DNA of 64,000 bases, taken from assembly GCF_001294535.1 (NCBI RefSeq), contig NZ_LGIC01000090.1, positions 1-64,000 of the forward strand, read 5' to 3'. Positions 1-53,129 of the stretch are shown here, in pieces. A program made the position numbers and the translations under genes. Under the pieces are notes generated by a model, which was not told the DNA's origin, made no database searches, and saw only the letters and a program-made list of their open reading frames with translations. The stretch is from Cypionkella psychrotolerans (GTDB lineage Bacteria > Pseudomonadota > Alphaproteobacteria > Rhodobacterales > Rhodobacteraceae). How positions within the stretch are numbered: position 1 is the stretch's first letter; each line of letters begins with the position of its first letter.

Positions 1-92
1 CCCGCCTGCCCGACGTCGAGGGCGACAACCCCAAACGCCAGAAGTTCAAGCGCTGCCCGATCCATTGGCCGACAGGCGGGTTCTTCCACATC

Positions 93-131
93 CGCTGCCC
101 TCTCGTGGTTTGCGTGCAAACCACGAGAGGG
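93..131. repeat. 39-nt palindromic insert in the IS481 relic (copy A)
   Basis: Between the codons for FFHI and DIAEM, which adjoin in the family, lie 39 extra nucleotides. Positions 98-113 (CCCTCTCGTGGTTTGC) and 116-131 (GCAAACCACGAGAGGG) are perfect 16-bp inverted arms separated by only two bases. The frame is kept. That this is an insert is inferred from family sequence; the palindrome itself is seen. Confidence 0.7.
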
Positions 132-308
132 GACATCGCTGAGATGCAGACCGCTGAAGGCAAGCTCTCGCTCTTCGTCGGCATCGACCGGACTGCCAAG
201 TTCGCCGTCGCGCAACGCGTTGCAACGGCTGACAGACGCACCGTCTGGGAGTTCGTGCAACACATGCTCGAAGTCGTGCCCTATCAGGTTCATACCATTC
301 TCCCCGAT

Positions 309-350
309 CGAGCCATTGGAAGCGCCACGGGTTCAAGCCCAATGGCGAGG
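309..350. repeat. Palindromic insert (net 39 nt) after the catalytic Asp codon of the IS481 relic (copy B)
   Basis: The family motif T-D-N-G-I-Q-F-A-E-Q is split after Asp (306-308). Fourteen codons replace the single Asn codon before Gly-Ile (351-356), a net gain of 39 nt. GCCATTGG (312-319) and CCAATGGC (339-346) form an 8-bp inverted repeat with a 19-nt spacer, and a CCCC/GGGG pair lies outside at 302-305 and 349-352. It is a weaker hairpin than copies A and C. Confidence 0.55.
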
Positions 351-497
351 GGCATCCCGTTCGCCGAGCAACCCCGGAACCGCAATACGATCTACTCCCG
401 GCCAATGCGCTTCGACATGATCTGCGAGGCCAACGGGATTGAACACAGGCTGACGAAACCCAACCACCCATGGACGAACGGCCAAGTCGAGCGAATG

Positions 498-536
498 CTT
501 CTCGGTGTTTGACGGCAAACAGCTGTCAGCCAACCG
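498..536. repeat. 39-nt palindromic insert in the IS481 relic (copy C), carrying a stop codon
   Basis: These 39 extra nucleotides separate the codons for GQVERM and NRTIKDATIKRFHYD, which are contiguous in the family. GTTTG (507-511) and CAAAC (516-520) form a tight hairpin, and TGACGGC (510-516) pairs imperfectly with GCTGTCA (522-528). A TGA at 510-512 ends the reading frame. The order TCTCG, GTTTG, 3-4 nt, CAAAC resembles copy A. Confidence 0.6.
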
Positions 537-796
537 AACCGCACGATCAAGGACGCGACGATCAAGCGCTTCCACTACGACAGCCACGACCAGTTGCGAA
601 TACATCTCGCCGACTTCCTGGCAGCCTACAACTTCGCCCGACAGCACAAGACGCTGAACGGCCTCAGGCCCTACGCATACATCTGCAAAATCTGGACATC
701 AGAGCCAGATCGATTCATCCTAAACCCGATCCACCGGATGCCGGGACTGAACACTTAGGTATTCATTTGTGCGCTGCCTGCTCTGGGGTTTGCAGA

Positions 797-1311: not shown

Positions 1312-1352
1312 CCCTCTAGGCAGATTGCTGCACAATCGCCTGTCGGGCAATG
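1312..1352. repeat. 41-nt palindromic insert in the IS3 relic (copy D)
   Basis: SDQLT and DGHRFRI adjoin in the family but are separated here by 41 nt. GATTG (1323-1327) and CAATC (1333-1337) flank the loop CTGCA. The longer imperfect arms run from CCCTCTAGGCA (from 1312) to GCCTGTCGGG (ending 1347). The insert begins with CCCTCT as the copy A palindrome does, and its GGC(A)GATTG...CAATCGCC core matches copy F at 52133-52171. Confidence 0.6.
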
Positions 1353-51649: not shown

Positions 51650-52240
51650 ATGTAGAGTCTGCCCAATCCTGAAGGAGCAGACGAATGCGAAAGAGCCGTT
51701 TCACCGAGACCAGATTATTGCGATGATCAAAGAGCAGGAAGTCGGGCTGACTGTGGCAGAGGTCTGCCGCAAGCGCGGCATCAGCCCCGCGAGTTTTTAC
51801 AAGCTGAAGGCCAAATATGGCGGGATGGACGTGTCTGATGGCCGACGCCTTAAGCAGCTTGAGGACGAGAACGCAAAGCTCAAGCGGCTTGTGGCGGACA
51901 CGATGCTGGACGTTGTCGTGCTGAAAGACCTGCTGGGAAAGCGCTGACGACACCTGCCCAGCGGCGCGAAGCGGCGATCAAGGCGCTGCGGGACCACAAA
52001 ATCTCGCAGCGTCGGGTCTGCGACCTGGTTGGTGTCGACCCCAAGGCCGTGCGGCGCGCCCGCCCGCCTGATCATGCGGATATCCGTTTGGAAATGAACA
52101 AGATCGCCGAGAAGCGGCGTCGGTTTGGCTATCCGTTGGCCGGTAGGCGATTGCCTGCAATCGCCGTAAGGCGGCGCATTGGTGTCATGCTGGAACGTGT
52201 GGGCATGGTGATGAACGAAAAGAAGCTTTACCGGATTTGC
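51650..52240 (+). pseudogene. IS3-family orfA/orfB relic (5' part)
   Basis: After an IS-end-like TGTAGAGTCTGCCCAATCCT, ATG 51684 starts RKSRFTET. A one-base loss then shifts the frame to IIAMIKEQEVGLTVAEVCRK, RGISPASFYKLKAKYGGMDV, LKQLEDENAKLKRLVADTML, ending at 51947. OrfB follows: TPAQRREAAIKALRDH, VCDLVGVDPKAVRRARPPD and EKRRRFGY. A 39-nt insert (52133-52171) comes next, then RRIGVMLERVGMVMNEKKLY. Homology stops near 52240; the catalytic domain is missing here, though a matching 3' piece lies inverted at 53130-53290. Confidence 0.85.
52133..52171. repeat. 39-nt palindromic insert in an IS3 orfB relic (copy F)
   Basis: RRRFGY and RRIGVMLER are contiguous in the family but are separated here by 13 extra codons. 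GGCGATTG (52146-52153) and CAATCGCC (52158-52165) are perfect 8-bp arms around the loop CCTG. The core is nearly the same as copy D (1312-1352), 51 kb away in a different IS3-family relic. Confidence 0.7.
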
Positions 52241-53129
52241 ATCGTGCAGTTCTGCGCCGCGGTGTCGATCTGGCTTCCGTTACCAGCCCGGGCCATCCTG
52301 ATCTTCCTCGGTGCCGGGGTACCGCGCCTGCGCAGGGCATTCATCAGTTGTATCCGCTTTGGCGCTCCCGGTGGGATCAGGAGTAATCACTGCGGGTTTG
52401 ACCGCGAGGCAAAATGCAGCGACCATCGGATCTTGCACATCCAGTTCGGCAACATCGTCATTGCTGTCAAAAACGACCAGACTCCGGTCACCGATGAACA
52501 CCGCGATGGCCGCTTCAGGCAGTCCTCGAGCCTTGCTTCCTTGATGAAACCGCGCGCAATCGCGGCGATGCGGATCAGGCGCTGTCCGAGCGGCGCAGGA
52601 CGCGGCCCCCCAGCTGCTGGGCCATCTGTACCGTTATCCCGCTCTGGTGGCGGATTTCGCTTAGCATCATCGCCGCCGTGCGATCCTCTACTTCTTCTAG
52701 GCTGGAGATCTGGTCGATCAAGATCTGCAGCAGTCCCTGCGGGGTTTCCCCGACCGGCCCCTGCTGGCTCTCCGCTTCCACCACAGCCAAGAGCTTCTTG
52801 AGACCATGAGCAATCTCGTTCGTGTTTCGTGACAGGGACCGTTGACCTTTTGTTCGGCGGTGAACCCGCCCGGCTGAAGCCGCAGCAGACGCGCGAAGCG
52901 CTCAAAGGTTTCGGGCCAGCAGGAAAATGCGCGATTGATCGCTTGGATCAAAGGCCGCAATTCCGGCAACCTACCCTTTCGCATGGTTGACCGGATCTGT
53001 GTCGCAACGCCGTGCCGCGCGTCAAACAGGCGTGGTTCATTCATGTTGAATGCGACGCCCGCCGCTGTTGCTAGGCATCCGTCTCTGCCTTCGACCGTTG
53101 AAGGTTGATCGACCGCCCGGCAATACTGC
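52241..53129. other. Degraded stretch without an identifiable gene
   Basis: About 890 bases carry only short open frames. On the minus strand one reads NEPRLFDARHGVATQIRSTM and continues, after a shift, as HGLKKLLAVVEAESQQGP and ISSLEEVEDRTAAMMLSEIR to a stop at 52575. Another minus-strand frame (about 52280-52501) reads FIGDRSLVVFDSNDDVAEL. The composition looks like decayed coding sequence, but I recognise no family. Confidence 0.4.

What the first reader, a model, noticed from the sequence alone, without database searches (positions are those of the whole stretch)
93..536. Three 39-nt palindromic inserts inside one IS481 transposase relic
Seen: all conserved transposase blocks stay in a single frame, yet three extra stretches, each a net 39 nt, separate them (93-131, 309-350, 498-536). 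The first holds perfect 16-bp arms (98-113, 116-131). The third holds GTTTG/CAAAC and introduces the stop that kills the gene. Copies A and C share TCTCG, GTTTG, short loop, CAAAC in the same order. Inference: these are copies of a short palindromic element that inserts into coding sequence, reminiscent in concept of Rickettsia palindromic elements but much shorter. The baseline is remembered IS481 family sequence.
Basis: partly seen in the sequence, partly recalled or inferred. Interest (0 to 1): 0.78.

Follow-up and report, generated by a model that had tools for sequence, protein, structure and literature searches.

The report
Tiny hairpin elements inside insertion sequences
The three inserts are real: they are copies of tiny hairpin-forming DNA elements that have repeatedly inserted into the transposase genes of bacterial insertion sequences in the Rhodobacter group, and what moves them was not found.

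Summary
The same genome has an intact 324-codon IS481 gene without the three 39-nt inserts, and 64 of 80 relatives match at a length that lacks insert 2.

The inserts belong to families of short hairpin elements. Family B (insert 1, probably insert 3 reversed, plus window 1312-1352 and 52134-52172) is CRYTG-CCCGGCAG-[variable stem]-CGAGAGGG: 171 pattern hits in 51 of 149 relatives, 3 control hits. At 16 distinct exact empty sites no target base is duplicated; C^ in 15, TC^G in 9. Family A (insert 2) is a variable stem around a constant loop; E is a third type. Stems of A and B covary strongly.

Most copies examined lie in transposase genes of many IS families; ORFs about 1.2 kb away are mostly host genes.

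RAYT transposases do not explain the distribution. Most likely: non-autonomous REP/RPE-like elements, mobiliser unknown.

The parts
1..758 (+). IS481-family transposase gene (downstream two thirds; the rest lies beyond the contig end), carrying the inserts
   Evidence: rve domain, E 4.3e-6, below Pfam's cut-off; alignment to the intact 324-aa copy in the same genome
58..77 (+).
   Evidence: copies C8 and C65 have a 37-nt palindromic insert here; the C65 copy scores 27.6 bits with the B model
93..131 (+). insert 1: family B element, 5-nt leader CGCTG plus 34-nt hairpin; precise 39-nt insertion
   Evidence: B model 18.1 bits, E 0.058, third best in the window; same site filled in L021, L077, L080, empty in others
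308..350 (+). insert 2: family A element TCGA-[hairpin 312-346]-GAGG, net 39 nt
497..535 (-). insert 3: probable decayed family B element in reverse orientation; carries the in-frame stop 510-512
   Evidence: B model only weak: 10.1 bits, E 2.5, at 500-525 minus; 15.1 bits, E 0.27, in the paralogous copy L090
1264..1900 (+). IS3-family transposase relic carrying one B and one E element (extent by my reading)
   Evidence: 1561-1740: transpos_IS3 E 2.8e-9 (below its cut-off) and rve_3 E 6.3e-13
1312..1352 (-). family B element, 41 nt, precise insertion
   Evidence: B model 37.0 bits, best in the window; its flanks are adjacent in L189, an IS3 copy of the same genome
1508..1550 (+). family E element (core 1518-1544; outer limits approximate)
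   Evidence: 0 mismatches; empty site in L189, net 41; z -3.4 as DNA; z -1.9 as RNA
52134..52172 (+). family B element inside an IS3-like transposase gene (about 51680-52270)
   Evidence: B model 19.3 bits, E 0.033; IS3 assignment by my reading of the ORFs

Best explanation
The inserts are copies of non-autonomous, hairpin-forming mini-elements of about 36-45 nt. At least three families (A, B, E) circulate in Rhodobacterales and enter other mobile elements, chiefly IS transposase genes. SHOWN: the same families at many sites, in many IS families and species; empty sites; for B, precise insertion without target duplication, preferring TC^G; strong covariation of stems with constant ends (B) or a constant loop (A), so the hairpin is what is conserved; for B, usual breakage of the host frame. 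INFERRED: the hairpin is recognised, most likely as single-stranded DNA, by an enzyme supplied in trans that joins it at a short target without a staggered cut. The element then spreads further as a passenger whenever its host IS is copied; here the intact IS481 gene of the same genome could serve the broken copies. The window's perfect 16-bp arms arose later, when one arm was copied onto the other (template switch in an imperfect palindrome).
For: Empty sites: intact IS481 in the same genome; 64 of 80 relatives lack insert 2 by match length; 41 of 121 B elements have an empty site among held loci by a loose rule; 21 pass an exact rule, 16 distinct sites, C^ in 15, TC^G in 9, against 34 of 1365 (2.5%) at other offsets. 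Copies: B 171 hits in 51 of 149 genomes, 3 control hits; A 94 hits in 16 of 16 genomes chosen because their IS481 copy carries an insert, 6 control hits; E 12 hits in 7 of 16, 0 control. Covariation: B 96.0% of cells paired and 75 two-sided changes, shuffles 74.6% and 19.3; A 95.5% and 58, shuffles 66.5% and 17.7; 0 of 500 shuffles reach these. Host genes: against 91. Recent moves of A: L086 against empty L043 and L044 with flanks 99-100% identical, L045 against L032 98-99%. Arm conversion.
Against: No mobilising gene was identified. RAYT genes do not track B (20 of 51 B-positive and 26 of 98 B-negative genomes have one over cut-off; Fisher p 0.14) and 31 RAYT loci show no convincing A, B or E copy. 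A replaces about 4 nt of target, unlike B, so one mechanism may not serve all. In the window's genome the A core has only 6 lax hits against 1 control, and none of those six passed the stem test, so A may be confined there to the IS481 copies. Some A elements with long stems look intergenic (L116, L131, L134, L137, L139). Some copy number is passenger spread. The exact rule fixes the ends in advance; under the loose rule the best-listed empty site agrees with those ends in 26 of 41, is one base off in 12 and further off in 3.
Confidence: 0.75

Rival explanations
1. They are ordinary REPs moved by RAYT tyrosine transposases (GTAG/REPtron system).
For: Imperfect hairpins; the 41-nt B class has an extra base, often T, on the 3' arm; no target duplication; the window's genome encodes a RAYT (NF047646, 140 bits, cut-off 80).
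Against: GTAG near the ends in only 4 of 121 B and 1 of 55 A. RAYT over cut-off in 46 of 149 genomes, overlap with B not significant; B-rich genomes without a RAYT match include G023 (16 hits), G083 (21), G018 (9), G091 (7). RAYT over cut-off in 4 of 16 insert-bearing genomes. No convincing element beside 31 RAYT loci.
Confidence: 0.12
2. The extra segments are natural variable loops of IS481 transposases, or random expansions, not insertions of a mobile element.
For: The three 39-nt inserts keep the window's conserved blocks in one frame.
Against: The same families lie in genes of IS3, IS5, IS21, IS66, IS110 and IS256 type; most B lengths shift the frame; intact IS481 lacks them.
Confidence: 0.02
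3. They are remnants left by excision, or trimmed ends, of a larger autonomous element rather than mini-elements in their own right.
For: Precise ends and a target preference suggest a recombinase.
Against: None that is strong: my B pattern admitted only 30-42 nt, so a longer version was not looked for. The conserved hairpin across families speaks for a unit that is complete as it stands.
Confidence: 0.12
4. They are CGTC-tagged REPs / Rickettsia palindromic elements in new hosts.
For: CGTC REPs predominate in alphaproteobacteria, lack a dedicated transposase and can lie inside ORFs (PMC3733652, passages seen). Family E ends in CCGACG (reverse CGTCGG) or similar with CGTC in 6 of 14 oriented copies.
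Against: CGTC near the ends in 3 of 55 A and 17 of 121 B, the latter partly from the target. That paper describes CGTC REPs as mostly head-to-head dimers; I did not count dimers here, and the copies listed look mostly single.
Confidence: 0.15

Closest known systems
CGTC-tagged REPs, including Rickettsia palindromic elements RPE-4 and RPE-6 (PMC3733652, passages seen)
   Same: Short hairpin repeats of alphaproteobacteria with variable stems, sometimes inside ORFs, no dedicated transposase known
   Different: Tag absent from A and B; here the targets are mainly IS transposase genes and B enters at TC^G with exact empty sites; low copy number per genome
GTAG REPs with RAYT transposases
   Same: Short imperfect hairpins, non-autonomous
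   Different: No GTAG tag, no copies found beside RAYT genes, distribution not associated with RAYT
Longer Rickettsia palindromic elements such as RPE-1 (mentioned in PMC3733652; lengths recalled)
   Same: Palindromic inserts in coding sequence
   Different: Longer, in host genes and described as in frame; here short, in IS genes, and B mostly frame-breaking
MITEs
   Same: Non-autonomous, presumably moved in trans
   Different: Far shorter than the 70-300 bp given in PMC3733652; no target duplication for B

Membership tests
GTAG REP / REPtron | GTAG tetranucleotide beside the palindrome | tested here: not met
   4 of 121 B, 1 of 55 A
GTAG REP / REPtron | RAYT gene flanked by cognate copies | tested here: not met
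   31 RAYT loci scanned; three matches with up to 2 substitutions allowed, which I judge chance
GTAG REP / REPtron | high copy number, mainly intergenic | tested here: not met
   at most 21 exact B hits in one genome among 149; ORFs beside B often match transposases
CGTC REP / RPE-4, RPE-6 (families A and B) | unpaired CGTC at one end | tested here: not met
   A 3 of 55; B 17 of 121, and not part of the B consensus
CGTC REP / RPE-4, RPE-6 (family E) | unpaired CGTC at one end | tested here: inconclusive
   6 of 14 oriented E copies; the published consensus is in a figure not held
CGTC REP | no dedicated transposase gene | tested here: inconclusive
   only Y1 and RAYT families were tested
MITE | target-site duplication | tested here: not met
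   B: none at the 21 exact empty sites; A and E not resolved
IS200/IS605-type transposition (works like) | Y1/HUH transposase present in element-bearing genomes | tested here: not met
   PF01797 over cut-off in 0 of 9 genomes (insensitive to RAYT); RAYT over cut-off in 4 of 16
IS200/IS605-type transposition (works like) | hairpin cut and joined as a single strand | not testable with these tools
   needs biochemistry

The most novel reading that the evidence does not exclude
Several families of tiny hairpin elements are specialised parasites of other mobile DNA: a still unknown alphaproteobacterial activity inserts them preferentially into IS transposase genes (for example while an IS is single-stranded or circular during transposition), silencing the IS and riding on it by trans-mobilisation, so that they act as a hyperparasite and a natural brake on IS.
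Probability: 0.25. Interest if true: 0.85.

Novelty: new variant of a known kind. Interest (0 to 1): 0.62.

Why it matters
How RPE-like and CGTC-type palindromic elements move is open, because no transposase is known to go with them. Here the question becomes testable: a family (B) with exact empty sites, a short target (TC^G) and no target duplication, and another (A) with insertions so recent that flanks are still 98-100% identical to empty sites in other genera. If the bias for IS genes is mechanistic and not only tolerance, it would be a new layer of parasitism among mobile elements. It also helps annotation: a number of broken transposases in Rhodobacterales are broken by these elements.

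Tried and rejected
Rejected: one 39-nt frame-keeping element; natural loops of IS481; RAYT link. The first RAYT test, with PF01797, was insensitive (the own-genome RAYT scores 22.4-22.6 against a cut-off of 23), so it was repeated with NF047646. Rfam, on 13 loci at E up to 1, gave no family for A or B; one E copy overlaps a partial BASRCI153 match (24.7 bits, gathering score 137). A literature search for the two B end motifs gave six unrelated papers. Other paper searches were (the last found nothing); I saw listings with abstract starts only, plus passages of PMC3733652. No listing named these families; the library lacks most subscription journals. The codon-position test on own-genome filled copies is weak (47 segregating sites: 10, 13, 24) and is not used. 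Insert 3 as family B is probable only.

Limits and dropped rows. The automatic stem rule set aside 37 of 126 B matches; many of these are hairpins by eye with an extra base; five loci (L175, L198, L203, L204, L211) I judged chance and dropped, leaving 121. At least four of the 171 hits are therefore chance by eye. Of the 94 A hits only those in fetched loci were checked for a stem. The ORFs beside B were chosen by a GC-position rule that can take a wrong frame; 115 of 120 were passed on. In some searches only 25 of 36, 74 and 181 matching families are shown, and models overlap, so exact totals are not known. For the control, 150 ORFs were found; I took the first 77 of the shuffled list and left out 7 (from L175, L183, L194 twice, L203 twice, L204), giving 70.

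Full report
1. What is at the coordinates. The window is the start of contig C90 of a 5.08-Mb, 93-contig draft. Its first 758 nt encode the downstream two thirds of an IS481-type transposase (rve domain E 4.3e-6, below Pfam's cut-off). The same contig holds, near 77 kb, an insert-free IS481 gene open over 324 codons (L089). Aligned to it (87.2% over 626 nt), the window copy has four extra stretches: 58-77 (15 nt net), 93-131 (39), 308-350 (39 net) and 497-535 (39). The stop at 510-512 lies in insert 3. Other copies in the genome match the window at 86-99% (the insert-free gene at 76% by that scoring), and the six further copies that reach insert 3 (C14, C8, C63, C73, C65, C19) carry it with TGA at the same place. 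The filled IS was therefore copied after being filled. That the intact gene supplies transposase in trans is an inference.

2. Empty sites elsewhere. Of 80 relatives kept by the genome-contig scan, 64 match over 309 nt where the window has 348, that is, without insert 2. A consensus from 36 loci and the window lacks the inserts. Many of these loci have other inserts, most of them hairpin-like, at other sites of the same gene; insert sites seen include consensus nt 29, 31, 33, 57, 69, 102, 324, 395, 399, 411, 587, 590, 665, 713, 737 and 821.

3. Families. Family A is NNGA-[stem]-CGCCATTGGTYCRAG-[stem']-GANN, the outer two bases also paired. Family B is CRYTG-CCCGGCAG-[stem]-short loop-[stem']-CGAGAGGG; the common 41-nt class has one extra base, often T, in the 3' arm. 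Family E is a hairpin GAAAACGATCC...GGATCGTTTTC with further conserved flanks. On 39 B and 28 A elements, 96.0% and 95.5% of cells pair, with 75 and 58 two-sided changes against 19.3 and 17.7 in shuffles; every pair that varies shows two-sided change. The structures were written from these sequences, which favours the paired percentage; with partners slid by 1-3 columns it falls to 34-48% (B) and 31-38% (A). The hairpin, not its sequence, is conserved. The two measures that count pairs or types separate less clearly from shuffles (pairs with two-sided change: 31 of 500 shuffles reach B, 5 of 500 A; further types: 1 of 500 and 138 of 500).

4. The window's inserts by family. The B covariance model (72 sequences) has as its three best matches in the window 1312-1352 (37.0 bits, E 7.8e-6), 52134-52172 (19.3, E 0.033) and 93-131 (18.1, E 0.058); E-values of this model are rough. 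Insert 3 is matched only weakly, in reverse (10.1 bits, E 2.5; 15.1 bits, E 0.27 in the paralogue L090). The remnant at 58-77 corresponds to a 37-nt palindromic insert in copies C8 and C65, the latter 27.6 bits. At the insert-1 site copy C65 has CCCGGCAG and scores 36.3 bits; the window has CCCTCTCG, which pairs with CGAGAGGG, and scores 18.1. The perfect arms are best read as a later conversion of one arm from the other (inference).

5. Abundance. B: 171 pattern hits in 51 of 149 genomes of the family, 3 hits of the reversed control, up to 21 in one genome; at least four are chance by eye. In 16 genomes that include the window's own: 37 hits in 7, 1 control. A, with up to one mismatch: 94 hits in 16 of 16 genomes chosen because their IS481 copy carries an insert, 6 control hits. 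In the window's own genome a similar A search gave 6 hits against 1 control, none of which passed the stem test. E, with up to three mismatches: 12 hits in 7 of 16 genomes, 0 control. Among 72,556 plasmid records, single E, B and A queries hit 40, 111 and 40 records; the organisms named are mostly Rhodobacterales, with a few such as Rhizobium, Neorhizobium, Sphingomonas and Croceicoccus for E (60 of the 111 B records were listed).

6. Where they sit. Of 115 ORFs beside B elements, 26 match the IS3 model, 19 IS5_3, 15 IS481, 14 IS5_2, 6 IS630, 5 IS6, 3 IS66 and 3 the IS21 helper. Models overlap; if IS3, IS5_3, IS630, IS6, IS66 and IS21 helper hits share no member, which was not checked, they make 62 of 115. 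Among the 25 of 74 families shown, host families (CobT, RfbA, guanine deaminase, PhnM) have one member each; the 49 not shown cannot have more than one. Beside 21 A and E elements (13 A, 8 E), all ten matching families are transposases or IS accessory proteins (IS3 8, IS481 4, IS256 3, and others). Among 70 control ORFs about 1.2 kb away in such loci, 181 families match, and of the 25 shown only IS481 (2), IS66 (1) and IS110 (1) are transposases. In the plasmid listings most matches lie under no listed gene (that gene table omits pseudogenes); the features named are mostly transposases (IS3, istA, DDE), with a few hypothetical proteins and one helix-turn-helix protein. The bias to IS genes is strong. 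Targeting, tolerance and amplification by the IS were not separated.

7. How B inserts. Under a loose rule 41 of 121 B elements have an empty site among held loci; the best-listed one agrees with a CRYTG...CGAGAGGG insert in 26, is one base off in 12 and further off in 3. Under an exact rule 21 remain, 16 distinct sites: C on the left in 15, TC^G in 9, against 34 of 1365 (2.5%) TCG at other offsets. At these no target base is duplicated or lost. The same site can be filled by different stems in different species (CTTCCACATC^GACATTGCCG in L021 and L077; GGCGCTTGTC^GTATTTCACC in L181, L274, L275), which fits repeated insertion at preferred sites, though concerted divergence of one old insertion is not excluded. 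Family A instead replaces about four target bases.

8. Effect on the host gene. B elements would keep frame in 18 of 89, A in 10 of 21 with a plain net length (three nets of 75 and 24 nt set aside). E nets are 42 nt in 11 of 18 table entries, some elements being counted on both strands. In-frame retention is thus not the rule for B; for A it is near half and for E common, so selection on frame is not excluded there.

9. Who moves them. RAYT (NF047646) is over its cut-off in 46 of 149 genomes; 20 of the 51 B-positive genomes have it (Fisher p 0.14), and 4 of 16 insert-bearing genomes. No convincing A, B or E copy lies at 31 RAYT loci. Other mobilisers were not tested. The mechanism given (hairpin recognised by a trans-acting enzyme and joined at TC^G) is an inference from anatomy.

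10. Relation to the literature. The nearest described kind that I found is the CGTC-tagged REP superfamily, frequent in alphaproteobacteria, which includes Rickettsia RPE-4 and RPE-6, lies sometimes in ORFs and lacks a dedicated transposase (PMC3733652; passages). A and B fail its tag; E is inconclusive. I therefore file A and B as new families of the broad kind 'short palindromic repeats', with new behaviour, not as members of REP or RPE.

Noticed in passing
window 1312-1352, 1508-1550 and 52134-52172: Further B and E elements in two other IS3-type transposase genes of the same window.
   Followed up: yes
L072 (Sphingomonas sp. CFBP 8760), IS481 consensus nt 29 and 590: Two 23-24 nt inserts of another type (CCTGTCCTGAGC...CGAAGG) in the same transposase gene; a sequence type I recall as common in sphingomonads.
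   Followed up: no
L134, L137, L139, L116, L131: Family A elements with long stems that look intergenic; L134, L137 and L139 share the following sequence GGGTGTGAAACCCCCG.
   Followed up: no
L165 2875-2918 minus: A family E copy overlaps a partial, sub-threshold match to Rfam BASRCI153 (24.7 bits).
   Followed up: no
G000:C90:122562-122963 (L194): A RAYT gene in the window's genome with no A, B or E copy found beside it; PF01797 misses it by less than one bit.
   Followed up: yes
   Followed up: no
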